Of a stretch of 42,114 bases of DNA, positions 91 through 11,800 are shown in pieces (the stretch's first letter is position 1; every line of letters starts with the position of its first letter). The position numbers were made by a program, and so were the translations under genes. Origin of the DNA: Oligoflexia bacterium. Its GTDB lineage: Bacteria; Bdellovibrionota; UBA1018. The DNA is taken from positions 1-42,114 of the forward strand of contig JACMQW010000051.1 in NCBI GenBank assembly GCA_014376785.1, read 5' to 3'. The notes under the pieces are model-generated. The model ran no database searches. It was not told where the DNA came from and was given only the letters and a program-made list of their open reading frames with translations.

Positions 91-234
91 AGCACTTCCC
101 TGTCAAAAATCTGACGGAAAAAATCCGTGCGGGCAGAAACATGAGGATCTTCCTCACAGACCCTAACGAATTCTTCAAAAAACTGACGCTCGCTCTTCCT
201 AAGCCTTTCTCTTAGACTCTTAAGTGGGGTGTTC

Positions 235-1332
235 ATGCGTATCAATCGTGCCTTTGTCGAAACCGCTTTCGTTGGATTGTTCCTCCTTTCCGCATTCCCT
301 GCTTTGGCAGCTCCTGACGTGGTCTGCTCGAAAACCAAAGGATCCGGCGTTTTCAATACGGGCTGCGAGAACCTGAAAGAAGAAATCGATGGATCGGATG
401 GGCTCGGTTACGAAGTAACAGACTCAGACTTGGTCAAAAGAGAGCAGAACATCCATCGGCAACGGCTCCAGCCCCCTCGACTCGCCTCCAATGGAAAAAT
501 GAAAATCATCTCGATGAACGTAGGAGGCGCGGACTTCCATCTGACGAATCAATTCACGATCGAATCGAACTGCCCGGCTTACAAACTCTGCCATCCGGAA
601 GTAGAAGCACAAATTCTAGCATTTTTAACGATCCAACAACCGGACGTGGTTTTCCTTCAGGAGATCATGAATGAAGACCAACTCAGAAGTGCCGTTTTAC
701 CAGACGGCTATGACTTCCGCTGTGGCTGGGGCGGAGGCGACCACACCATCAAAGAGATCTGCCTCGCGTGGAAGAAAAATTCATTTCAGTCGATTGAGCC
801 CTGCCGCAACATCTTCACGGGCCACGGCGGCGCCTTGGGATGCGTGCTTGATCACAATAATGAAAAAATTCAATTCATCAGCGTTCATCCTTCCGCTTGG
901 AACTCTTCCGAGCGTCGTGCTACCCAACTGGGAATCTGGGACCAGATCGCGGAGCGGCACTTACCGGTCATCGTGGCCGGAGATTTCAACAGCGAAAAAG
1001 GCACCGCCGGAATCAAATCGATGTACCCCGCGCCGGCAGAATTCGGAACACTCTTCGGAACTTTTGCGAAAGGGTTCGGACGAATCCCATCACCATCATT
1101 CTTTTATGGGCTCGCACGCATCCGAAAAGCGGGCATTTTCGATTTTATCAAAAAGCACTCCACCGTTTTTGGGGAAAAGATCGATCACGCCTTCTCAAAC
1201 TTCGGACGAGTAGAATCTGTCTGCATCGGAGGGGACCCCGGATGCCACTGGAAAGCCGGAAGCCTCATTCGGGGTAATGATTTCAACTTCAAGATCGACC
1301 ACTTTCCGATTGTCATCACCTTGGCTTGGTAA
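235..1332 (+). CDS. Exported endonuclease/exonuclease/phosphatase (EEP)-fold protein
   Basis: About 365 residues. An N-terminal signal peptide ends near ALA-A (about residue 24). The EEP (DNase I-like) signatures appear in order: a metal-site region IISMNVGG, DVVFLQEI with the catalytic Glu, VIVAGDFNSEKG with the GDFN motif, and a C-terminal KIDHFPIV with the general-base Asp-His. The family cuts phosphodiesters in nucleic acids, phosphoinositides or sphingomyelin; the substrate cannot be told here. Several Cys pairs suit a periplasmic or secreted enzyme. The ATG at 235 is preferred; an in-frame GTG at 229 adds two residues. The next gene starts 25 bases downstream on the same strand, so the pair is probably co-transcribed. 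Fold assignment is solid; substrate (DNA, RNA or lipid head group) is unknown. Confidence 0.85.
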   Translation: MRINRAFVETAFVGLFLLSAFPALAAPDVVCSKTKGSGVFNTGCENLKEEIDGSDGLGYEVTDSDLVKREQNIHRQRLQPPRLASNGKMKIISMNVGGADFHLTNQFTIESNCPAYKLCHPEVEAQILAFLTIQQPDVVFLQEIMNEDQLRSAVLPDGYDFRCGWGGGDHTIKEICLAWKKNSFQSIEPCRNIFTGHGGALGCVLDHNNEKIQFISVHPSAWNSSERRATQLGIWDQIAERHLPVIVAGDFNSEKGTAGIKSMYPAPAEFGTLFGTFAKGFGRIPSPSFFYGLARIRKAGIFDFIKKHSTVFGEKIDHAFSNFGRVESVCIGGDPGCHWKAGSLIRGNDFNFKIDHFPIVITLAW

Positions 1333-1357
1333 TCCGAAAGCGTTAAAAAGGCTTCAA

Positions 1358-2818
1358 ATGAGAATCTATTTGAACGTTATTTCGATTTTTTTCATGCTCG
1401 TTGCTTCGTCACAGGCTGAGATTTATCCGTCACGAGGAAATACCGAAGTTATTTATCTTGGTGATATGAACGTCGATTTCGAAGTCCGAATGATGCTTTT
1501 TCGCCAGGCGAGAAAATCAATCGACATTCTTTCCATGTCACAAACGGCGGACGAAATCGGCTTGCCGATTTTGAAATCAATCCGGAGTGCGCAAATAAAT
1601 CACGGAGTGAAAGTTCGAATTGCTTACGATCAGATGATTTCCATGATGGAGGGAGACCTCACCAACACTTCGGCGCGCATCATCTCTGATCCTTCCCTGC
1701 CCTGCCCTGGCGAGGTCATCTGCACCGGCACCATTGAGAAATGGTTAAGCGGACTCGACTATAATGACCTTCAACACCAAAAGGTGACCGTCATTGATGC
1801 CGGCACGCCGAGCGAGGTCATCATCGTCGGCGGGCGTGGATACACCGACTTTAATAAAGACGCCGCAGATTCTGCACTTCTCATTCGAAGAATCAAACCA
1901 GGAATTCCTTACATTGGCGACGATATCATCGACAATTTGGAACGCACTTGGGACTTTCTAAACTCCATTTCTAAACCCATGCATTTCGAAAAACCTTACA
2001 AAGACAACTCCAGGGTTTTAAAAACCCGAGGGAAACGACTAGCAGAAAAAAGCAAAGATCGCGTGGACGTTCTTGAAATAATGAGCGTACTCAGGCGGCC
2101 AGCGGCAGAAATGGCAGGAAAATCACTCAAAGGATTTCAGTTCCACCCGGAAGAGTCACAATTTCTGACCAATAATCTTCTCGAGAATTTGAACCAATCA
2201 AAAAAGGATCATAGCTTTAAAAATCGAGCAGAATTACCTAATGATAACCACTCCCGAATCATCTCAGACATCGAACAATTTAATGGAAAAGTAGAGCTCA
2301 GCGCTTACGCACTCGGCATGACCGAAGACCTGAGAACCGCTCTAGTGAACTTCGTGAACCGAGGTAACACTCTCGAATTCTACACGAATGGGCAGGAGTC
2401 ACATAAACTGCTTATGATGAATGGTCTTCCAGTCTTTTACACCGTCGAAGAACTTAAAAAAATTTACGACCTCACGCGCGGTGGAAGAGGGAAAGTGATC
2501 ACTTACTTGTTGGACGCAGGTAAAGCGAAAAAATTAGGAGAGAACCCGTTTCTGCATAGAAAACAGGTGCTCCTGAAAAACCAATCGACTCACATTGCTT
2601 ACACCGGAAGCGATAACTTCACTTGGTCTGCAGCAAAGAAAAATGACGAAAGCCTAGCCCGATTTGACGATCGTCGAATGGTGAAAGCATTCTCGCAAGT
2701 GACTGCTTCTGAGATCGGCGCTTATACAAAAATCTCTGAAGCTGAAGTAAACGAAATGTACCATAACCGTCCGCTTCTCTACCGCTGCGCGCGCTCACTA
2801 ATTCGTGCGAGTTACTAA
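1358..2818 (+). CDS. Exported phospholipase D-like protein, paralog A
   Basis: 486 residues from the ATG at 1358, which begins a clean signal peptide ending SSQA about residue 20. A longer frame back to 1277 would overlap the upstream gene and bury the signal. The first HKD motif is intact (H140, K142, D147). The second site keeps H400 and K402 and the downstream GSDNFTWS..NDES block, but Lys407 replaces the usual Asp. The superfamily includes phospholipases, nucleases and phosphotransferases. A paralog lies at 3749-5275 on the other strand; both share SDPSLPC and NRP..Y blocks. It ends in RCARSLIRASY, a tail resembling those of two neighbours. The last 21 bases overlap the convergent gene at 2798. 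Activity is likely but unproven, because HKD enzymes normally use two His. Confidence 0.85.
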   Translation: MRIYLNVISIFFMLVASSQAEIYPSRGNTEVIYLGDMNVDFEVRMMLFRQARKSIDILSMSQTADEIGLPILKSIRSAQINHGVKVRIAYDQMISMMEGDLTNTSARIISDPSLPCPGEVICTGTIEKWLSGLDYNDLQHQKVTVIDAGTPSEVIIVGGRGYTDFNKDAADSALLIRRIKPGIPYIGDDIIDNLERTWDFLNSISKPMHFEKPYKDNSRVLKTRGKRLAEKSKDRVDVLEIMSVLRRPAAEMAGKSLKGFQFHPEESQFLTNNLLENLNQSKKDHSFKNRAELPNDNHSRIISDIEQFNGKVELSAYALGMTEDLRTALVNFVNRGNTLEFYTNGQESHKLLMMNGLPVFYTVEELKKIYDLTRGGRGKVITYLLDAGKAKKLGENPFLHRKQVLLKNQSTHIAYTGSDNFTWSAAKKNDESLARFDDRRMVKAFSQVTASEIGAYTKISEAEVNEMYHNRPLLYRCARSLIRASY

Positions 2819-3712
2819 TGGAGGCATCCATTCGGATGGAATTCCGTATTCCTCTTTCAGCGATTTCGTTCTCGAACCACTGTGAATGAGCTGGCGATTC
2901 TGGAGCGCGCGAATACCCGCTAGCGGAATCATTGTCTCCAAGGGATCTATTACCCCGCCAGAGTAACCCAAGAATTTATCGAACCCATGAAAGATCATGT
3001 TCGAACAATTTCGAAAGAGCGTGTGATAGGTCATCGACACATTTGGGTCGAGATAATAGTTTAAAGCAAACTCCCAGTAATCCTGCACACTCTTCGACTT
3101 CGGGAACGCGATCAGGTACTGATCGACATCATTCTCGGTACGCGAGAGGTCGGCCAGGGTTTGCTCGGTTGAGAGTAACGTCCGCTTTAATCCGAAGTAA
3201 TCTTGGGTAGCATTCCACAAATTATATTCGGGTCCTCCGCGCATGGAAAATGCCCCGTTCGAAAGCGTAACCGATTGCACGATGATCGGTTTCGCATTCG
3301 GATCGGTCTGGGAAAACAGAATCATCCCCTTCCCCGGTTTAAAAACGACGCGAAGCTCGACGTGAGCGGCCAACCAACGCGGCGGAACTCGCTCCACCTC
3401 ATAGACCAAACGGTCTACGGAGTCCTGGCGAGGAACGACTGCTATCCAAAACCGGTCGTCGTGCTTGAAGTTCGCAATAAAGTGAAAAAGTGCTGGGTTA
3501 AAGCCGTTTAGGGATGGATTCTGGTTTATTTCAGCCGGAGTTAAAATTCGATAGCTCCGGTCATGAACCGTATCCAGGCAGGCCCCTTTAAATTTGCCGC
3601 TCGGCATGACGCTGTTCGGCTCAAAGGGATCTTTTGGATCGACCAGGCAATTAACCGCAGCAGAGGCATTTAAAACGAAAACCGAAACCAGAAAGGCGAG
3701 TTTCATTCCCAT
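2798..3712 (-). CDS. Exported Cys/His protein, DUF4105/Lnb-like (paralog 1 of 3)
   Basis: 304 residues with a short signal peptide (cleavage near NASA). Three proteins in this window share its plan: an N-terminal DPFEP motif (in two of them), IANFKHDDRFWIAV, a histidine in WLAAHVELRVVF (H117), a GPEYNLWNATQD block, and a cysteine in FRNCSNMIFHG (C236). A conserved His followed by an N-C motif is what I would expect of the DUF4105/Lnb papain-like periplasmic domain, known from the Bacteroides lipoprotein N-acyltransferase. The match is by eye and moderate, so transacylase function is inference. It is the last gene of a minus-strand operon, 36 bases after the PLD-like paralog B, and overlaps the convergent PLD-like A by 21 bases. 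An alternative ATG lies at 3706. Confidence 0.7.
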   Translation of the reverse strand: MGMKLAFLVSVFVLNASAAVNCLVDPKDPFEPNSVMPSGKFKGACLDTVHDRSYRILTPAEINQNPSLNGFNPALFHFIANFKHDDRFWIAVVPRQDSVDRLVYEVERVPPRWLAAHVELRVVFKPGKGMILFSQTDPNAKPIIVQSVTLSNGAFSMRGGPEYNLWNATQDYFGLKRTLLSTEQTLADLSRTENDVDQYLIAFPKSKSVQDYWEFALNYYLDPNVSMTYHTLFRNCSNMIFHGFDKFLGYSGGVIDPLETMIPLAGIRALQNRQLIHSGSRTKSLKEEYGIPSEWMPPLVTRTN

Positions 3713-3748
3713 TTGGAAATGAGAACACTCCCTTGTCGAGTGATCAAC

Positions 3749-5275
3749 TTAAAAGAATTTGCGAACCAACGAGCGAAGGCAAAGGTACTTCCATGGACGG
3801 TTGGCGTCGAAGTGAAGGGTTTCCTCATGAGTGAGCAAGTCGAAATGCGAAAGCTCACTCGAGGTGACATCCATCATGTATTTTCCGAAACGCACATCTT
3901 CGATGAGGAAAAGGTTCTCATCATTTTTATGGGCTGCGGACCACGTCAGTGGATCAGACCCTGCATAGACGAATTTAGTTTTTTCGTTCGAAAAGACCAC
4001 CATCCGGCGATGGATGTAAGGAGCTTCCAACATTTCGGGGTTACGCTGCGGGTTTAAAACGTAGAGGTTCACTTTCCCTCCACTCTCAGGCTTTATCTCT
4101 TTGATTAGCCTTCCAACCGACTCGTAAGTGTAAGGCATGGCAAACTCTGAATCCATCGCCACCTTAAAAGCGACCGGACCATTCAAATAGAGATTTAGGG
4201 TGTTTCCACGGTTCACGAAGTCTACTAAAGCTTGGTGGGTGCCATCCGTCGGTCCGTAACTGTAACTCGTCCAATCGATCGTTCCATTGAATTCACGAAT
4301 CTCAGCATTCATGATTCTTTGGTTATCGTTCACGTAAGTATCGCGATTCTTACCGCGGTGATCGACCAACTGCTGGAAAAGATCATTGCTCATCGCCTTC
4401 ACCCCTTTCGGCTGGAACTGGAAGGGTTTCAACTCGCTCGCCGGGGTTAAGATCGCTGGCGTCCGAAGTAGAGCCAAAAGCTCTGCTGTATGCTGCTTTT
4501 CGATCGAAGTGATTGAAAATGTTTTAGGACTGCTTTCGGGTAAGAGCGTCGACCCCCGTTTCACCTGCCTAGGAATCCGAATCCAACTTTGATCAGCGAG
4601 TTTTCCGAGCGCTTTGTACACGGAATCAAACATCGCTTGGATATCGTCACCCACATAAGGGAGGTTCGGGTTAATCCGACGGAACGCCACGCTCGAATCG
4701 ATCCATCCCGCGCTGTTTGCCGTCTTCCCGCGACCAAATCCCATCAACACCACTTCATCCGGTTTACCGAGATTCAGAATGGTAATTTTATGGTGAACGT
4801 AGTCCAGAAAACCGATTCCTGAACTTAGCTTTTCGATCGGATGCGCACAGAGTGCTTCGCCGCGACAAGGGAGCGACGGATCTGAAATAATGGCTTTTAC
4901 CTGGTTGAATAAGTCATTCTTATCCATCGACAAACTTCGGTCGTAGACAAATCGTACTTTTGCTCCATTATTTTTCTGTGCGGCATGCACGGCTTGCATG
5001 AATGGTTCGCCGTACAGATCGATCGTTTGGGAGTAGCCGACAAAGTCGATCGATGTGGCTGCGCGAATGAGACTGAACTGAACGTCGAGGTCGACATTTT
5101 TCGATCCGAGATAGACCATTTCAGTGTTTCCCCGCGTTTCGTATTCGGCTGAAAAAGCGGGAATCACATAAAACGCCAAGAGAAAACCCAAGCGGAAGGG
5201 GTTCCGCCCCTTGGAATTAAAGAGGGTGGTAGCATAAAAGATAATGTACGCGAGCACCGATCGGGAATAGGTCAT
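3749..5275 (-). CDS. Exported phospholipase D-like protein, paralog B (degenerate catalytic motifs)
   Basis: 508 residues, homologous along its length to PLD-like A (shared RGNTE, SDPSLPC, GSD..TWSAA.KNDE). The start at 5275 has an AGAGGA ribosome site at 5281-5286 that overlaps the stop of the upstream gene, so translation is probably coupled. Two hydrophobic stretches follow (about residues 7-20 and 27-43); the second ends FSA-E like a signal peptide. Both HKD motifs have decayed: H161 and K163 are kept but Asp is Asn168, and the second reads HRRMVVFS, with Arg for Lys and Ser for Asp. It may therefore bind rather than cut, or use one site supplied by a partner. The tail LCLRSLVRKFF resembles those of PLD-like A and the preceding glycosyltransferase. 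Confidence 0.82.
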   Translation of the reverse strand: MTYSRSVLAYIIFYATTLFNSKGRNPFRLGFLLAFYVIPAFSAEYETRGNTEMVYLGSKNVDLDVQFSLIRAATSIDFVGYSQTIDLYGEPFMQAVHAAQKNNGAKVRFVYDRSLSMDKNDLFNQVKAIISDPSLPCRGEALCAHPIEKLSSGIGFLDYVHHKITILNLGKPDEVVLMGFGRGKTANSAGWIDSSVAFRRINPNLPYVGDDIQAMFDSVYKALGKLADQSWIRIPRQVKRGSTLLPESSPKTFSITSIEKQHTAELLALLRTPAILTPASELKPFQFQPKGVKAMSNDLFQQLVDHRGKNRDTYVNDNQRIMNAEIREFNGTIDWTSYSYGPTDGTHQALVDFVNRGNTLNLYLNGPVAFKVAMDSEFAMPYTYESVGRLIKEIKPESGGKVNLYVLNPQRNPEMLEAPYIHRRMVVFSNEKTKFVYAGSDPLTWSAAHKNDENLFLIEDVRFGKYMMDVTSSELSHFDLLTHEETLHFDANRPWKYLCLRSLVRKFF

Positions 5276-5284
5276 TTCATTCCT

Positions 5285-6622
5285 CTAAAGCGCAAATTTT
5301 CTCAGAGCCCGAACGCACTTCCAAAAAATTCCGCCCGGCTGCTGGTAGTCAGGGGACATATCGAGTGTTTTTCCGTCTAACGCTTTTAGCGCGTGGGGTT
5401 TAGACATAATCCAGTCCGCAATTCGAGTCGGACACTGTTCACCGCAGAACTGCAATTGGCGATCGACTAATTTGGAAGCGTTCTCCTTGTTAGCGAGCAG
5501 TGAGTGCAGTTCCGCCCCTACTTTGGATTGGTCCGTTAAGACTCGAGCTAGTCCCACTTTTGAAAAGAAGTCCGCATTGTATTTTTCTTGTCCGCCGTTG
5601 ATGTCCAATAAAACGAGGGGCTTCTTACGGTAAAAGAGCTCCATGGGAGTCAGCCCACCGGTCTTCGAAATGATCGCGTCTGAAACGCGCATGTAATTAA
5701 ACAACTCATCTTGCTTTACCAGAGGCTCGATGAAGATGGTTTGATTCGCGGGCAACTTTTTAGCGAGCTCTCCCAAGTTTTTAATGTGGCCGACATTTCG
5801 ACCACAAATCGCGACGACCTGAACTTTTTCATTTGGAAAGGCGTTAAAGATCGCTTTCACCATGAGAGGAAAATTCCCTACTCCATTTGATCCTCCCGAA
5901 AGCAAAATGGTTTTCGCAGTCGGATCCAAATTTTTAGCGAGTTTGAAATTTTCTAAATCTGCATCAGAAACAGTGTTGAATACTTTTGGATTCAGGGGCA
6001 TTCCGGTGGCCATCACTCGGTCTGCCGGCACTCCGCGTTTAATCCAACTATCCCGAATCTCTGGTGTCGCCACAAACGCCATATCGACTTGCATCGGCAT
6101 TCGAGCGAAGTAGGTTTCATCGACCAGATCGGTGTGCACCCATCCGATCGGGATATTTCGGAAGTAGCCTTCGTCTCTCAGATGGATGAGAACTTCGGTT
6201 GCTCCCGGGAAGGTCGAGACGATCAGCTGCGGATGAATTTCCTGCAAACGTTTCAAAACCAGTTTTGGCCGAAACTGGGACATGGTCGGCATGTCTCCGA
6301 TCGACTCTACCTCTCGTCCCACACTCATGTAGTCGCGAAAAATTTCGTCGTAAAAGTTTGGAAATTTTTGGGTCACGAAGTCGTAGGCCAAATTGGACGG
6401 TCCTTTCGTAATCGGATTCATGAACTCCCGGAGATCGATTTCGATGACTTCCACGCCAGGATAGCGTGCTTTTAAATCGTCTCTAATTCCATTCGCCGCC
6501 GCCGTATGTCCCATGCCCACTGACCCGTGAATGAGAACGATCGGAGACTCTGCCCAGGCGGCAGACAGAAGGCTCAGTGCGAGAACGAAGAGAAAGAAAA
6601 TTTTTCGAATGAGAGTGGTCAC
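5285..6622 (-). CDS. MGDG synthase/UgtP-like glycosyltransferase with a signal peptide
   Basis: 445 residues from a GTG at 6622, directly behind AAGGGGAAG. An ATG at 6673 would add 17 residues but sits inside a short direct repeat and precedes no ribosome site. The N-terminal MGDG-synthase domain is clear (HGSVGMGHTAAANGI, then FPNFYDEIF), and the C-terminal GT-B nucleotide-sugar half has LLSGGSNGVG, SDAIISKTGGLTPMEL and LLDINGGQEKYNADFF. The family (plant MGD1, Bacillus UgtP) adds sugars to diacylglycerol at the cytoplasmic membrane face. Here a hydrophobic segment ending SAAWAES precedes the domain and looks like a cleavable signal, which is odd for a UDP-sugar enzyme. It could instead be an uncleaved anchor. 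Ten bases separate it from PLD-like B. The C-terminus is KCVRALRKFAL. Confidence 0.85.
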   Translation of the reverse strand: MTTLIRKIFFLFVLALSLLSAAWAESPIVLIHGSVGMGHTAAANGIRDDLKARYPGVEVIEIDLREFMNPITKGPSNLAYDFVTQKFPNFYDEIFRDYMSVGREVESIGDMPTMSQFRPKLVLKRLQEIHPQLIVSTFPGATEVLIHLRDEGYFRNIPIGWVHTDLVDETYFARMPMQVDMAFVATPEIRDSWIKRGVPADRVMATGMPLNPKVFNTVSDADLENFKLAKNLDPTAKTILLSGGSNGVGNFPLMVKAIFNAFPNEKVQVVAICGRNVGHIKNLGELAKKLPANQTIFIEPLVKQDELFNYMRVSDAIISKTGGLTPMELFYRKKPLVLLDINGGQEKYNADFFSKVGLARVLTDQSKVGAELHSLLANKENASKLVDRQLQFCGEQCPTRIADWIMSKPHALKALDGKTLDMSPDYQQPGGIFWKCVRALRKFAL

Positions 6623-6656
6623 CTTCCCCTTTCGTCTGAGAAAGATCAGAGCTTGA

Positions 6657-6692
6657 GCGGTTTCAGGTGTCATGTTGCGGCTTCAGGTGTCA
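6657..6692. repeat. Two-copy 16-base direct repeat
   Basis: GCGGTTTCAGGTGTCA (6657-6672) recurs with one change, GCGGCTTCAGGTGTCA (6677-6692), four bases later, giving a 20-base period. It lies in the short gap between the phosphatase-like gene and the glycosyltransferase gene and overlaps the alternative ATG at 6673. It could be an operator read on two helix faces one turn-pair apart, or a recent slip duplication. Confidence 0.6.
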
Positions 6693-6710
6693 AAATACCA
6701 TCGAGTGAAT

Positions 6711-7751
6711 CTATTGGGATTTAAGCAGACTCGTTCCCGCGTTTCCGGAAGCGGGCATTTCTCCGAGTAAGTTTTCTAAAGTAGGCCGCAAATCGACCTG
6801 GCGGTAAAAGTCTGCGCGGAGTTTTCCAACTCCTCGGCCGCTCAGGATGGGCGAAAGGATAACCGCAGCCCATATCCGAGCAGACGTTGGTTCCCACCAA
6901 CCATGCCACCGGAAAACCACATCCCCGCGACCATGGTCGGTCGTAATCACAAAAGACGTATTCTCTCCTTCTTTACCTGAGCGGATCTCATGGATCAGCT
7001 TCATGATTTCGACTTCATAAAAATGCAGAGACTTTCGGTAATTTTCAACATCGCCTGAGTGGGCGTACTCGTCGGAGTCGACAAGCGAAACATAGAGAAA
7101 CTTGGGCCTGCGAAATCGGTAATAGGTATTCGCGAGAGAGAGCGTGTAACGGTCCCAGCGAGAATTTTTCCACGGGGGCATGTCCTGCGATGAGCCCAAC
7201 TCGATCTTTGCCAGAGCTAATTTCTGATCCGAAGTGAGGGTCGACAATTGGGTGACGGAATTGAAAGCAACGCTGCGAACGGACCTAGGATTCGACTCCA
7301 CCGCCCGATCGATCCGCTCCCAAGAAGCAAACGTGGCGACGTCCTCAGGTAGGGTTCCTCGGTCAATGAGCGAATCGACCAGTGTCTTCTCACTGCTCCG
7401 AGGACAATCGTTCGTCCAGCAGGTCCTCTGGTAGTGGCCTGTAAAGATCGCCTGGTAACCTGCAAGACTCCTCAGAGAGGAGTTCGAAACCCACATCGAC
7501 TCATGGTCAGAACGGAGACCGTAGTAGAACCCTTGACTTCGAATCTCTGCGCTTAAACGAGGCCAATGCTCGGGAAGGTCTGCTTCTTTCACGCCGTCGA
7601 CCGTGATGAAAACGATACGACCCTTTGGGAAGGGCGAAGCCAGAGAGAATTTTTTAACCGCTGGAAAAGGTGCCGGCCCAATCAGCGTCCGCAGAATCGC
7701 TAAGCCCAAAGCAATTCCTGTGACTAAAAAAACCGATTTTCCGAAGGCCAT
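6711..7751 (-). CDS. Membrane-anchored alkaline-phosphatase-superfamily phosphoesterase
   Basis: 346 residues. One hydrophobic segment (about residues 5-24) acts as a signal or anchor. The alkaline phosphatase/sulfatase/phosphodiesterase metal site is visible: VFITVDGV (first Asp), a Ser/Thr-rich nucleophile region around SNSSLRSLAGYQAIFTG, a DSDEYAHSGD metal block, ITTDHGRGD with Asp-His, and a later His in RWHGWW. Members include nucleotide pyrophosphatases, phosphoglycerol and phosphoethanolamine transferases and sulfatases; this short form is most like a type I phosphodiesterase. It is the first gene of the minus-strand operon (this gene, glycosyltransferase, PLD-like B, DUF4105-like 1), so its promoter should lie in 7752-7914 facing the divergent paralog 3. 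Superfamily is confident, substrate open. Confidence 0.82.
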   Translation of the reverse strand: MAFGKSVFLVTGIALGLAILRTLIGPAPFPAVKKFSLASPFPKGRIVFITVDGVKEADLPEHWPRLSAEIRSQGFYYGLRSDHESMWVSNSSLRSLAGYQAIFTGHYQRTCWTNDCPRSSEKTLVDSLIDRGTLPEDVATFASWERIDRAVESNPRSVRSVAFNSVTQLSTLTSDQKLALAKIELGSSQDMPPWKNSRWDRYTLSLANTYYRFRRPKFLYVSLVDSDEYAHSGDVENYRKSLHFYEVEIMKLIHEIRSGKEGENTSFVITTDHGRGDVVFRWHGWWEPTSARIWAAVILSPILSGRGVGKLRADFYRQVDLRPTLENLLGEMPASGNAGTSLLKSQ

Positions 7752-7914
7752 GACTTAATCTATCCGGAGAGCTTCCGACCACGCAATCCTACAAAGACCC
7801 GTCAAGCTCCTGTCGTAAATGGACTCAGGCTACCCTAGCTATCCGCTACATCTCCGCGGCGGAATTCCGATAGGTTTATTGGAAACTTTCGCTCGAAAAC
7901 TCGGAACCGGATCG

Positions 7915-8847
7915 ATGAGGAAAAGAACCCTAATCCTACTCAGCATGATTCTCTGGGGGACCTACCCGGGGACGGGTGTCCATATTGCGAAAGCAGAAAC
8001 TCCGGAAGACCCCTATGCTCCTCACGGAATTTTAGACCGCGGGGCTAAAAAAGGAAAACGGCTGAATATCGCTAAACGCCGCAGCTTCCGAATAGTAAGC
8101 GCAGAAGATGCTGAACTCCGAATTCCCCGAGAGGAGATCAAAAAATTTCCTGGCGCGCTTTTCATCGCAAATATTCGGCATGATGATGAATATTGGATCG
8201 GTATTTTTCCGGGAGAAAATCCCATTGAAGAAGTTCGCTACCTCATGGAGCCCTTCGCTCCGAAAATCATTATGGCCCACGGGATGATCCGCGCGAGATT
8301 TAAGGCGGGGTTTGAACCGGTGCTATATCATCAAACCGACCGAAACCGCGCAGCCATCGTTTTGCATGACCTCATCATCACGGCCGGACCGCTTAAAACG
8401 GTGAGAGCCCCCGCCATTAATGTTCCCGCGATGCTGCGTGATGAATATGCACTGGTGCACCAAATGGCGACACTCGACCAGGAAATCACGAACTCCCTGA
8501 TTCGGCTTCATCACAAAGTTTTACAGTATCCCCTCAATTTCTCAGACCGAGGTCGCAACAATTTTTGGCGCCTCATTTTGAAGAATTACCACGACCCTGA
8601 AATCACTCAGACTTACAATATGGTCACTCGAAGCTGCCTCACGCCGATTTTCGAAACTTTGTACGAAGCCATGGGAATGAAGATGGGCTGGCAGGATAAG
8701 GTCGTGAATTGCTATCCCTACTTCACTCCGGATACCCTGACGTTTTTAGGCCTTCGAGAGCCCAATGAGACGCTCCCAAGTCTGAATGAGGAACGGAAGC
8801 TAGCTCTCAAGGCAAAGCGCTGCGCAGACCTTTTAAAGAGCGATTAA
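7915..8847 (+). CDS. Exported Cys/His protein, DUF4105/Lnb-like (paralog 3 of 3, most diverged)
   Basis: 310 residues from the ATG at 7915, which begins a signal peptide ending HIAKA-E. The open frame extends to 7819, but that extension has no signal character. It aligns by eye with the two paralogs: IANIRHDDEYWIGIFP, IMAHGMIRARFKAG (candidate His) and MVTRSCLTPIFETL (candidate Cys). The GPEYNL block and the FLGY motif are lost and a Lys/Arg-rich N-terminal region is gained, so it has diverged most. Its TAA stop shares the palindrome TTAA (8844-8847) with the stop of convergent paralog 2. The resemblance to DUF4105 is moderate and function is inferred from paralogs only. Confidence 0.65.
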   Translation: MRKRTLILLSMILWGTYPGTGVHIAKAETPEDPYAPHGILDRGAKKGKRLNIAKRRSFRIVSAEDAELRIPREEIKKFPGALFIANIRHDDEYWIGIFPGENPIEEVRYLMEPFAPKIIMAHGMIRARFKAGFEPVLYHQTDRNRAAIVLHDLIITAGPLKTVRAPAINVPAMLRDEYALVHQMATLDQEITNSLIRLHHKVLQYPLNFSDRGRNNFWRLILKNYHDPEITQTYNMVTRSCLTPIFETLYEAMGMKMGWQDKVVNCYPYFTPDTLTFLGLREPNETLPSLNEERKLALKAKRCADLLKSD

Positions 8848-9761
8848 CGAACGGGAAACTCCGCGTTCAAAGACGAAATAATCGACGCCTCGGTAACGAG
8901 TTTTCGGTCTTCGAGTGCTTTCAGTGTGAGCACAGGGATGAGCGTTCGGAGCGGTTTCAGGCGCGAAGGTCGGTATCCCAAATACTGATCGAGCCCGTGG
9001 AATAGGGTCGTCACACAATTTCGATAAACCGTGTGGTAAGTATCCGAAACAACCGGGTCATGATTAAAAACCAACGCCGAATCGAAATAGCCTTGAGCTG
9101 ACTTTCCAGCCGGCAAGAAAAGTTCGATTTGATCGACTTGATGATTGAAACCATTCGCTCGGACCATTACCTGTTCTGGAGACAGAAGCGTACGAGCGAG
9201 GCCGAAGTTATCCTGAGTTGCGTTCAGCAGATTATACTCCGGACCGTCGAGCATCGGCATCGCCGTCACGGAAATCAAAACCGAACTCATTTTTATCGGC
9301 AACGCCCTGAAATCAGTTTGTGAAAAAAGGAGCGCTTCTTTTCCAGCTTTAAAAGTGAAGCGCACCATCGTGTGCGCAGCCAGCCACTTCGGAGGAACGC
9401 GCTCTAATTCATAAATCACACGATCAACTGCATCCACCTTCGGAATCACCGCGACCCAAAACTGATTCGCGTGCTTCAAGTTCGCAACGAAAGTGAACTC
9501 TTTTGCATGATACCGAGCCAAGGCAGGAATGGCAGAAAGCTCAAAAGCATTCAAAATGCGGTAATTACGTTCTTCCTGATTTCGCATGCATGCGCCTCGG
9601 TGAGACCCAAACGGCATGTGGCTATCGGGCTCAAAAGGATCGCGCGAATCAAAACGACAGTCACGAGCTTCAGACGAGTAACCATCCACAGCACTGATGA
9701 GCGTAAGGCAGACGAATAAGGCGATCGAAGCGAGCGGTCGAGCTTTCATGAAAATCATCAC
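8844..9761 (-). CDS. Exported Cys/His protein, DUF4105/Lnb-like (paralog 2 of 3)
   Basis: 305 residues from a GTG at 9761, or 301 from an ATG at 9749 that gives a neater signal peptide (MKARPLASIALFVCL). It is closely related to paralog 1 along its length: FDSRDPFEPDSHMP, VANLKHANQFWVAV, PPKWLAAHTMVRFTF (candidate His), GPEYNLLNATQDNFGL and VYRNCVTTLFHGLDQYLGY (candidate Cys). The GTG overlaps the stop of speA in the four bases GTGA, so it may be translated by coupling from speA even though the two have no obvious functional link. Function is inferred only from the family resemblance to the DUF4105/Lnb periplasmic domain. Confidence 0.7.
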   Translation of the reverse strand: MMIFMKARPLASIALFVCLTLISAVDGYSSEARDCRFDSRDPFEPDSHMPFGSHRGACMRNQEERNYRILNAFELSAIPALARYHAKEFTFVANLKHANQFWVAVIPKVDAVDRVIYELERVPPKWLAAHTMVRFTFKAGKEALLFSQTDFRALPIKMSSVLISVTAMPMLDGPEYNLLNATQDNFGLARTLLSPEQVMVRANGFNHQVDQIELFLPAGKSAQGYFDSALVFNHDPVVSDTYHTVYRNCVTTLFHGLDQYLGYRPSRLKPLRTLIPVLTLKALEDRKLVTEASIISSLNAEFPVR

Positions 9762-11800
9762 GGAGAAAGCAACGGATTCACTCCGTTCGTTTCAGATCCG
9801 AGAATTCCATTCGATTTTAACCCGTGTTCATTATTTCCCTTGAACCCGTCTTTCGAATCGGTCTGACGACTGGCGTGCATCGTCGGCTGGCTCTCCGAAC
9901 TATCAATGTAAGTGTAGCCATGAAGAACTTTTTCGTAAAAGTTCTGGAGATCAACTCCTTCTTTTGGCTTGATCGCGCCTTCGCGCACCTTCTGGTCGAT
10001 TTGTTCTTTTACCCGCTTCTCAAGATCAGTCGCAGAGTACTGAATCCACGAAAGGACGCTGGCGATGTTGTTTCCTTGGATGACTTCCTCGATGTAATAA
10101 CCACCCGGCTCCGTCTCATCGAGGAAAACGTGCACTTCGTTCACGCGTCCGAAGAGGTTGTGCAGATCCCCCATGATGTCTTGATAGGCACCCATGAGGA
10201 ACATTCCGAGGTAGTAATGCTCGGTGGACTTCAAGTTATGAAGAGGCAGCGTGTCCTTAATGTCCCGAAGGTCGATGAACTTATTCACCTTCCCGTCCGA
10301 ATCGCAGGTGATGTCTACCAGGGTTGCCTGACGTGTGGGTTCTTCATCAAGCCGATGGATCGGACAAATCGGAAAGAGGTGTTGAATTGCCCAGTGGTCC
10401 GGCATCGATTGGAAAACGGAGAAATTGCAAAGGTACTGGTCGGCAAGCTGCTTATTGAGTGCTTCCACTTCTTCTGGAACGTACTTTAGTCCGGCCGAGT
10501 TCTTGTAGATAACCTTACAGATCTGCCAGAAGAGGTGCTCCACTTTCGCTTTGTCTTCGAGCGACAGAAACCCGAGTTTGAACATCGAGAGGGCTTCTTC
10601 TTTTCTCGCCACGGCATCGTGAAAATGCTCGAGCAAGTTCTTCGCCGAGAGATTTTGCATCAGGAAGCGCATTTCCTTCACAACGTCATCTTCATCGGGT
10701 GATTCTTCGAGCGACATCGGCGTCGCGCCGACTTCGATGTTTCCGAAAACGTTCACGATCAGTACCGAGTGGTGAGCCACAATCGCACGTCCGGATTCAG
10801 AAACGATGTTCGGTTCAGCAACTTCCTCGGACTGACAAATTTCCTGAATCGAGTAAACGACATCGGAAACGTATTCATTCAGCGAATAGTTGATCGAAGA
10901 TTCAAAGCTGGTGCGGGAACCGTCGTAATCGACGCCGAGTCCCCCTCCCACATCCAAGTATTCTAATTTCAAGCCCATCTTCATGAGCTTTGCGTAAATC
11001 CGAGTGGCTTCTTTCGTCGCGTCCTTCACGGTGCGAATGTTCGTGATCTGGGAACCAATGTGGAAGTGGAGAAGTTTGAAACAATCTTCCATCCCTTGCG
11101 CGCGCAGGACTTGGACGGCGTGCAGAAGTTCGGGAGTCGTGAGTCCGAATTTCGCGGATTCTCCGCCGCTAGACTCCCACTTTCCGGAACCTTTCGAGTA
11201 GAGCTTCACTCGAATTCCGATGTAGGGTTGAACGCCCATTTCTTTTGAAAGCTGGATCACCTGAAAAAGCTCGGTTAACTTTTCGACAACGATGATGACG
11301 TTTTTTCCGAGTTTGCGCCCCATGAGCGCCATTTTGATAAAACCATGATCTTTATAGCCGTTACAGATGATCAAGGAATCGGGCGAAAGGTTCGCTGCCG
11401 ACACGATCACGAGTTCTGCTTTCGATCCCGCTTCTAGCCCGTAGTCGTAATCACGGCCGGCATCGACGATTTCTTCGACGACCTCACGCATTTGATTCAC
11501 TTTAACCGGATAGACGCCCTTGTAACGGCCCTTGTAACCGAATTCTACGATGGATTTTCTGAACGCTTCGTTCAGCGAGATCACGCGGTGTCGAATGATG
11601 TCTTGGAAACGAATAAGGACGGGAAGGTTCACGCCTTGCTCCTTCACTTCCTCGATCACGCTCATCAAATCGATGCCCGGGCCTTCGCCTCGGCGTGGGT
11701 GCACAGTCATGTGACCGCTCGGATTAATTGAGAAGTACTGATCTCCCCAGTTTTCGATGTTGTAGATCTTCAATGAATCGGAAGCGCCCCATGTTCTCAT
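9758..11800 (-). CDS. speA: Biosynthetic arginine decarboxylase
   Basis: 680 residues; the E. coli enzyme has about 658. It converts arginine to agmatine for putrescine and spermidine synthesis, using PLP. The alanine-racemase-like barrel is plain: VYPVKVNQ with the PLP lysine, GLEAGSKAEL, IICNGYKD, HFHIGSQ, DVGGGLGVDYDGS and SESGRAIVAHHSV. The C-terminal half has the MPDHWAIQ and MGAYQDIMGDLHNLFG blocks of SpeA. After about residue 630 there is a Ser/Asn/Gly-rich tail of roughly 45 residues that the E. coli protein lacks. Neither agmatinase nor spermidine synthase genes are in this window, so the rest of the pathway must be elsewhere. Identification is secure. Confidence 0.97.
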   Translation of the reverse strand: MRTWGASDSLKIYNIENWGDQYFSINPSGHMTVHPRRGEGPGIDLMSVIEEVKEQGVNLPVLIRFQDIIRHRVISLNEAFRKSIVEFGYKGRYKGVYPVKVNQMREVVEEIVDAGRDYDYGLEAGSKAELVIVSAANLSPDSLIICNGYKDHGFIKMALMGRKLGKNVIIVVEKLTELFQVIQLSKEMGVQPYIGIRVKLYSKGSGKWESSGGESAKFGLTTPELLHAVQVLRAQGMEDCFKLLHFHIGSQITNIRTVKDATKEATRIYAKLMKMGLKLEYLDVGGGLGVDYDGSRTSFESSINYSLNEYVSDVVYSIQEICQSEEVAEPNIVSESGRAIVAHHSVLIVNVFGNIEVGATPMSLEESPDEDDVVKEMRFLMQNLSAKNLLEHFHDAVARKEEALSMFKLGFLSLEDKAKVEHLFWQICKVIYKNSAGLKYVPEEVEALNKQLADQYLCNFSVFQSMPDHWAIQHLFPICPIHRLDEEPTRQATLVDITCDSDGKVNKFIDLRDIKDTLPLHNLKSTEHYYLGMFLMGAYQDIMGDLHNLFGRVNEVHVFLDETEPGGYYIEEVIQGNNIASVLSWIQYSATDLEKRVKEQIDQKVREGAIKPKEGVDLQNFYEKVLHGYTYIDSSESQPTMHASRQTDSKDGFKGNNEHGLKSNGILGSETNGVNPLLSP

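What the first reader, a model, noticed from the sequence alone, without database searches (positions are those of the whole stretch)
235..9761. Island of exported phosphodiester- and lipid-type enzymes around a four-gene operon
Seen: EEP-fold enzyme, two PLD-like paralogs, MGDG-synthase-like protein, alkaline-phosphatase-superfamily protein and three DUF4105-like proteins, all with signal peptides or anchors and packed on both strands. Known: these folds act on phospholipids, glycolipids, lipoproteins or nucleic acids. Inference: a module remodelling or attacking envelope lipids (own or prey), and possibly a previously undescribed system. The alternative is a prey-DNA degrading set, since EEP and PLD folds also include nucleases.
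Basis: partly seen in the sequence, partly recalled or inferred. Interest (0 to 1): 0.74.

Follow-up and report, generated by a model that had tools for sequence, protein, structure and literature searches.

The report
Exported lipid-enzyme toolkit around glycolipid synthase
A predator-phylum bacterium carries a cluster of exported enzymes that cut or build membrane lipids, centred on a sugar-adding enzyme normally kept inside the cell, and relatives weld the same enzyme to other lipid enzymes, which suggests these bacteria rework the membranes of other cells.

Summary
In detail: eight genes at 229-9761, all with N-terminal export signals or anchors. The lipid reading is partly supported and can be sharpened. 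The hub is E (5285-6673), an exported relative of MGDG/diglucosyl-DAG synthases that keeps the UDP-sugar-binding motifs. E occurs in 24 of 369 genomes of the phylum. All 26 E sequences read with an intact N-terminus start with a hydrophobic export signal or anchor; two more distant relatives used as controls start at the catalytic domain. In other families E lies beside, or is fused to, lipid enzymes: PLD (three fusions, three neighbours), sphingomyelinase-like EEP (five loci), AP-superfamily (one), permuted-NlpC/P60 plus PlsC-type acyltransferase fusions (~1,200 aa), ceramidase, GH1 glycosidase and exported UDP-glucose pyrophosphorylase. One E is fused to two U-boxes. The three DUF4105/Lnb-like genes C, G and H do not follow E across the phylum; they are a local expansion. 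A DNA-degrading set is disfavoured: the EEP profile matches sphingomyelinase C best, and E is a glycolipid synthase type. Best explanation: a mosaic, exported glycolipid and phospholipid remodelling toolkit, probably acting on or in a prey or host cell. Localisation, substrates and co-expression are untested.

The parts
229..1332 (+). A: exported EEP-fold phosphodiesterase, sphingomyelinase-C-like; signal peptide; N97, E145, H220, D252/N254, D319 and H358 kept
   Evidence: Pfam PF03372 7.5e-9; alignment A4; profile to PDB: sphingomyelinase C/beta-hemolysin 8e-14; motif positions
1277..2818 (+). B: exported PLD-superfamily protein with two HxK motifs (H167xK, H427xK) and GSDN; a likelier start at Met29 (nt 1361) lies 28 nt after A
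   Evidence: PF13091 1.2e-11; alignment A3
2798..3712 (-). C: exported DUF4105/Lnb_N-like (permuted NlpC/P60) protein, Cys236 in R-N-C and conserved His84/His117; last gene of F-E-D-C
   Evidence: paralog of H and G; transitive link to Lnb_N via contig C16; not conserved with E elsewhere
3749..5275 (-). D: exported PLD-like paralog of B with a decayed second motif (HxR, GSDP), perhaps a weak or non-catalytic partner
   Evidence: PF13091 1.1e-5; alignment A3
5285..6673 (-). E: exported MGDG/diglucosyl-DAG-synthase-type GT-B glycosyltransferase, hub of the conserved set; G53-x-G-H56, K337-x-GG and GGQE363-xx-N366 motifs kept
   Evidence: PF06925 9.6e-15; PDB profile 9wde 2.7e-43, 4wyi 2.5e-38; alignment A1; export signal in all E with an N-terminus
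6711..7751 (-). F: membrane-anchored or exported alkaline-phosphatase-superfamily phosphodiesterase; metal-ligand pattern D52, D225/H231, D272/H273, H283 and candidate nucleophile S95 kept
   Evidence: weak Pfam hits; 31% identical copy linked to E in G037
7819..8847 (+). G: exported Lnb_N-like paralog (Cys273 in R-S-C); probably a local expansion, not part of the conserved core
   Evidence: Lnb_N 0.0018
8844..9761 (-). H: exported Lnb_N-like paralog, closest to C; overlaps speA by 4 nt; probably a local expansion
   Evidence: 47% identity to C

Best explanation
The core A, B/D, E, F is one instance of a mosaic family of exported lipid-remodelling sets in the predatory phylum Bdellovibrionota, built around an exported glycolipid synthase (E). 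Shown: E is an MGDG/DGDG-synthase-type glycosyltransferase with intact donor motifs and an export signal, and it is repeatedly linked or fused to phospholipid, sphingolipid and acyl-transfer enzymes. Inferred: A cleaves head groups (sphingomyelinase-like) and B, with or without D, cleaves or transfers phosphodiesters of phospholipids, giving ceramide, diacylglycerol or phosphatidic acid; F removes or transfers phosphate or phospho-head-groups; E glycosylates the diacylglycerol or ceramide. Because E needs a nucleotide sugar, which the periplasm lacks, the most likely work-place is the cytosol-facing membranes of a prey or host cell (or its spilled contents). C, G and H are Lnb-like thiol acyltransferases or phospholipases recruited locally.
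For: E domain. Export: all 26 E proteins read with an intact N-terminus have an export-type hydrophobic N-terminus, one of them a lipobox. Two bacterial relatives (22-24% identical) start directly at the GT domain. Linkage: G037 EEP-PLD-E-PLD-AP and G024 EEP-PLD-x-E; fusions E-PLD in G047, G055, G337; about 1,200-aa fusions of E with a permuted-NlpC/P60-like domain (conserved His, Asn-Cys in most) and a PlsC-type acyltransferase (PF01553, best 5e-7, two of eight members). GH1 within 10 kb of E in 10 of 19 genomes against 0.19 expected, ceramidase 6 of 13 against 0.08, across several families. PLD linked or fused in 6 of 24 against 1.1 expected, EEP within 5 kb in 5 against 0.7. EEP is closest to sphingomyelinase C. 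For a target-cell cytosol: E fused to two U-boxes in G165 (PF04564 3.6e-29) beside an ankyrin-repeat protein; UDP-glucose pyrophosphorylase-like proteins with signal-like N-termini next to E in G055 and G313 and elsewhere in six more E genomes; a cultured bacterial predator, Bdellovibrio sp. NC01 (genome size 3,975,853, PMC7137782), carries an E fusion.
Against: No substrate, localisation or expression data. Only 24 of 369 genomes have E, so it is dispensable. Sets differ strongly between genomes; the A-B/D-E-F set is seen only here and in G037. C/G/H do not follow E. Export is predicted by a crude heuristic, and no secretion system that would carry these proteins into another cell was identified; a Sec signal leads only to the periplasm or, with a further step, beyond. 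The Polaromonas plasmid relative (GT plus NlpC/P60-like) looks anchored with the enzyme on the cytosolic side, i.e. an ordinary lipid-synthesis enzyme. The EEP profile was built from E-linked copies, so its specificity is partly circular, and its one strong new hit (G022) is not near E. Linkage tests treat related genomes as independent.
Confidence: 0.55

Rival explanations
1. Own-envelope remodelling: the enzymes work in the bacterium's own periplasm or outer membrane, converting its phospholipids to glycolipids, with E using a lipid-linked or scavenged sugar donor instead of UDP-sugar.
For: Sec-type signals or anchors, and a lipobox on the G001 copy; MGDG-synthase-type enzymes usually serve self lipids (general knowledge); the Polaromonas copy sits beside patatin and polyprenyl synthetase genes.
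Against: UDP-sugar-binding motifs conserved although no UDP-sugar is expected in a periplasm; patchy distribution and shuffling partners; fusion to U-boxes in G165; sphingomyelinase- and ceramidase-type partners.
Confidence: 0.25
2. Lipid scavenging: secreted hydrolases (EEP, PLD, AP, ceramidase, GH1, Lnb-like) break prey lipids down for phosphate and carbon.
For: Most members are hydrolase folds and exported; predators reuse prey material (general knowledge).
Against: The hub is a synthase, not a hydrolase, and is fused to an acyltransferase (PlsC type) and linked to UDP-glucose pyrophosphorylase: these build lipids.
Confidence: 0.12
3. Prey nucleic-acid degrading set: EEP and PLD are nucleases.
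For: PLD profile finds endonuclease Nuc first (6.7e-11); both folds include nucleases.
Against: EEP profile finds sphingomyelinase C first (8e-14), DNA-acting enzymes at 1e-7 or weaker; E, its fusions and the ceramidase/GH1/acyltransferase partners have no nucleic-acid role.
Confidence: 0.05
4. Chance neighbourhood of unrelated exported genes in a secretion-rich genome.
For: Many other genes of the window are exported; C/G/H not conserved with E.
Against: E-PLD-EEP(-AP) recurs in other families, with gene fusions; linkage far above expectation for GH1 and ceramidase.
Confidence: 0.03

Closest known systems
MGDG synthase / processive diacylglycerol glucosyltransferase (GT28; MGD1, UgtP/YpfP)
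   Same: E matches over the whole GT-B domain (9wde 2.7e-43, 4wyi 2.5e-38), with the acceptor-side G-x-G-H and donor-side K-x-GG..GGQE motifs.
   Different: Known ones are cytosol- or stroma-facing without a Sec signal; E is exported in all copies with a readable N-terminus and often fused to PLD, NlpC/P60-like, PlsC-like or U-box domains.
Bacterial neutral sphingomyelinase C / beta-hemolysin (EEP superfamily)
   Same: Best solved relatives of the A profile (8e-14), exported, catalytic pattern kept.
   Different: Distant; A itself hits nothing in the PDB alone; substrate untested.
DUF4105/Lnb and the permuted NlpC/P60 lipid enzymes (Tox-Act1, YiiX, LRAT; PMC12994826)
   Same: C/G/H keep Cys and His motifs and are Lnb_N-like; the E-fused domain has a conserved Gly-His and an Asn-Cys pair in most copies; the family includes acyltransferases and secreted phospholipase effectors.
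   Different: C/G/H score below the Lnb_N cut-off and are linked only transitively; profile-profile comparison with the E-fused domain is not significant.
Secreted lipid-directed Lipocone systems of Bdellovibrionota (CapCone-2 with hydrolase, patatin or acyltransferase; PMC12419801)
   Same: Same phylum; small secreted lipid-enzyme gene sets proposed to act on prey membranes.
   Different: No Lipocone domain was found here by the Pfam scan; the hub here is a glycolipid synthase, and the paper mentions neither MGDG nor glycolipids.
Tandem U-box E3-ligase effectors of intracellular bacteria (LubX type)
   Same: The G165 copy of E carries two U-boxes.
   Different: One genome only; not present in the window's E.

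Membership tests
MGDG/DGDG synthase (GT28) type glycosyltransferase: E | MGDG_synth N-domain plus GT28 C-domain | tested here: met
   PF06925 and PF04101 over cut-off
MGDG/DGDG synthase (GT28) type glycosyltransferase: E | Donor-site motif K-x-GG..E and GGQE..N, acceptor-side G-x-G-H | tested here: met
   Conserved in alignment A1, positions; one paralog (G047a) lacks the His
MGDG/DGDG synthase (GT28) type glycosyltransferase: E | Cytosol-facing location | tested here: not met
   Signal peptide or anchor in all E with an N-terminus, heuristic only; E is therefore not filed as an ordinary MGDG synthase
MGDG/DGDG synthase (GT28) type glycosyltransferase: E | Transfers Gal or Glc to DAG | not testable with these tools
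   needs enzyme assay
Neutral sphingomyelinase C: A | EEP fold with catalytic Asn/Glu/Asp/His set | tested here: met
Neutral sphingomyelinase C: A | Closest to SMase C among solved EEP proteins | tested here: met
   (8e-14; TDP2 1e-7 and exonuclease III 9e-6 behind)
Neutral sphingomyelinase C: A | Hydrolyses sphingomyelin | not testable with these tools
   needs assay
PLD superfamily: B | Two HxK(x)4D / GSxN motifs | tested here: met
   H167xK, H427xK, GSDN in B; the Asp after the second HxK is not kept
PLD superfamily: D | Two HxK motifs | tested here: not met
   second motif is HxR with GSDP; homologous to B but possibly inactive
Alkaline phosphatase superfamily: F | Two-metal ligand set and Ser/Thr nucleophile | tested here: inconclusive
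   pattern present and shared with the G037 copy but no Pfam model over cut-off
Lnb (DUF4105) lipoprotein N-acyltransferase: C, G, H | Lnb_N domain over curated cut-off | tested here: not met
   0.0018 and 0.0094, C none; only transitive link through contig C16
Lnb (DUF4105) lipoprotein N-acyltransferase: C, G, H | Catalytic His and Cys | tested here: inconclusive
   conserved His and Cys in A6; predicted fold too poor to judge

The most novel reading that the evidence does not exclude
E-type proteins are a new class of secreted effector: glycolipid synthases that work inside another cell, together with co-secreted lipases, acyltransferases and even a UDP-glucose-making enzyme, so that a bacterium builds foreign glycolipids in the membranes of its prey or eukaryotic host.
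Probability: 0.3. Interest if true: 0.87.

Novelty: new variant of a known kind. Interest (0 to 1): 0.66.

Why it matters
A glycosyltransferase that needs a nucleotide sugar should not be useful outside the cell, yet a whole family is exported and welded to lipid enzymes. If it works in prey or host cells, it would be a new way for predators or symbionts to rework foreign membranes, and it gives concrete, assayable candidates for the open question of how Bdellovibrio-like bacteria handle prey lipids.

Tried and rejected
Eight-gene module as read: rejected for C, G, H. Defence system: only weak PADLOC hits to PLD-type domains and none informative. Phage-borne set: no E in viral contigs. Structure route: AlphaFold of C (pLDDT 49) and D (pLDDT 34) too poor; PDB fold search of C gave nothing. 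Profile-profile comparison of C/G/H with the E-fused NlpC/P60-like domain and with Lnb-like neighbours of E elsewhere: not significant. PDB search for F: nothing; for the fusion tail: only coiled-coil noise. A broad alignment of E was too divergent for the genome-contig scan; a narrower one found three named relatives. Gene tree of E is poorly resolved in depth, so the number of independent fusion events is not claimed. Papers: no hit for MGDG synthase with Bdellovibrio.
Full report
What is there. Call them A (EEP), B and D (PLD paralogs, 38% identical), E (MGDG-synthase-like), F (alkaline-phosphatase superfamily), and C, G, H (Lnb_N/DUF4105-like paralogs). F-E-D-C run on one strand with gaps of 37, 9 and 36 nt. 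All eight have export-type N-termini by a simple heuristic, but so do many other genes of the window.

The organism. Named relatives of the locus are MAG contigs filed as Bdellovibrionales (SZAS-1), Bacteriovoracaceae (UBA2428) and, probably by misassignment, Lysobacteraceae (WA131c); their contig lengths equal those of G047, G084 and G037, members of the same order or phylum as the window's genome. One further genome, G245, has exactly the published size of Bdellovibrio sp. NC01 (3,975,853 bp). The window is therefore from an uncultured member of the predatory phylum Bdellovibrionota; whether this species is a predator is unknown.

E is the hub. Profile search puts E with processive diacylglycerol glucosyltransferase (2.7e-43) and plant MGDG synthase (2.5e-38), with donor and acceptor motifs kept. 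E is found in 24 of 369 genomes of the phylum, patchily: 5 genomes in the window's own family. All 26 E sequences read with an intact N-terminus begin with an export-type hydrophobic stretch, one with a lipobox. Two relatives from Anoxybacillus and Monoglobus plasmid records start directly at the GT domain, and the Polaromonas plasmid relative has a membrane anchor followed by arginines, which by the positive-inside rule would keep the enzyme in the cytosol. Export is thus a feature of this phylum's branch, as far as sampled.

Conserved company, type I. In G037, another family of the order, the order is EEP, PLD, E, PLD, AP-superfamily; in G024 it is EEP, PLD, one unknown gene, E. In G047, G055 and G337 E is fused to a PLD, and G047 and G055 have an exported EEP next door. 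EEPs close to A (E below 1e-60) occur in 6 of 369 genomes, five of them linked to E and one (G022) not; since the profile was built from the five, this is not an independent test. With generic counts, PLD is linked or fused in 6 of 24 E genomes against 1.1 expected, and EEP lies within 5 kb in 5 against 0.7 (assuming ten EEP per genome).

Conserved company, type II. In several other families E heads a ~1,200-residue exported protein whose middle part carries a permuted-NlpC/P60-like pattern (Gly-His and Asn-Cys, invariant in the nine aligned copies; one further paralog has Ser for Cys) and whose end is a PlsC-type acyltransferase (PF01553 in two of eight members, best 5e-7; YPEGS motif throughout). 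Beside it lie exported GH1 glycosidases (10 of 19 GH1-bearing E genomes linked, 0.19 expected), neutral ceramidases (6 of 13, 0.08 expected), and Lnb-like proteins. UDP-glucose pyrophosphorylase-like proteins with signal-like N-termini occur in eight E genomes (a ninth, G165, has copies whose export was not shown) and lie next to E in two; in the phylum at large the family is in about a tenth of genomes. These tests treat related genomes as independent; six of the genomes are one genus. In G165, E is fused to two U-boxes and neighbours an ankyrin-repeat protein, and a second E is fused to TPRs: domains typical of eukaryote-directed effectors, although TPR and ankyrin repeats also occur in free-living bacteria.

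What C, G, H are. They belong with the Lnb_N superfamily only transitively: the genome's tandem protein on contig C16 is over the Lnb_N cut-off and matches the C/G/H profile at 1.5e-101. Lnb and relatives are lipoprotein acyltransferases or secreted phospholipases (PMC12994826). C/G/H-type proteins occur in 38 of 369 genomes, mostly without E, so I treat them as a local expansion placed among the core genes rather than as a conserved part.

How it probably works. Shown: fold families, motifs, predicted export signals, linkage and fusion. Inferred: A removes phospho-head-groups from sphingo- or phospholipids (nearest solved relatives are sphingomyelinases C), B hydrolyses or transfers phosphodiesters (its paralog D has a decayed second motif), F acts on phosphate or phospho-head-groups, and E glycosylates the resulting diacylglycerol or ceramide. 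The need of E for a nucleotide sugar, the UDP-glucose-making neighbours, and the U-box fusion point to a cytosol that is not the producer's own: prey or host. This last step is the weakest; a Sec signal by itself reaches only the periplasm, and no delivery route was identified.

Against a nuclease set: the A profile prefers sphingomyelinases to DNA-acting enzymes by several orders of magnitude, and E with its partners has no nucleic-acid role; B/D alone remain ambiguous.

Novelty. Every fold is known; the exported glycolipid-synthase hub and its fusions I found described nowhere in the held literature, which is incomplete. The nearest published idea is secreted Lipocone lipid-enzyme pairs in Bdellovibrionota (PMC12419801). 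I rate it a new variant of a known kind, with a categorically newer reading (glycolipid-synthase effectors) not excluded.

Noticed in passing
L064:8458-10668 (G165): Exported MGDG-synthase-like protein fused to two U-box domains, next to an ankyrin-repeat protein (L064:5820-7511).
   Followed up: partly
L066:8371-10968 (G165): Second E copy fused to TPR repeats and possibly an FHA-like end.
   Followed up: no
L084:2830-5457 and L087:1315-3975: Polaromonas conjugative plasmids carry a GT plus NlpC/P60-like fusion, apparently anchored with the enzyme in the cytosol, in a row with AarF/UbiB and patatin genes and, in JS666, polyprenyl synthetase.
   Followed up: partly
L017:12846-14756, L055:7004-8965, L070-L075: UDP-glucose pyrophosphorylase-like proteins with signal-like N-termini, two of them next to E.
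   Followed up: partly
L079:3374-5263 (own genome, C16): 629-residue protein with two Lnb_N domains in tandem, related to C/G/H; another relative at L080:2679-3788.
   Followed up: partly
L067:8730-9587 (G022): EEP close to A, without E; an AP-superfamily protein (L067:4084-5775) lies about 3 kb away.
   Followed up: no
window 9758-11800: speA (arginine decarboxylase) overlaps H by 4 nt, so H may be co-transcribed with it rather than with the lipid genes.
   Followed up: no
L023 (JAGTJX010000003.1): Record titled Lysobacteraceae bacterium WA131c is grouped with the window's order, probably a misassigned title.
   Followed up: no
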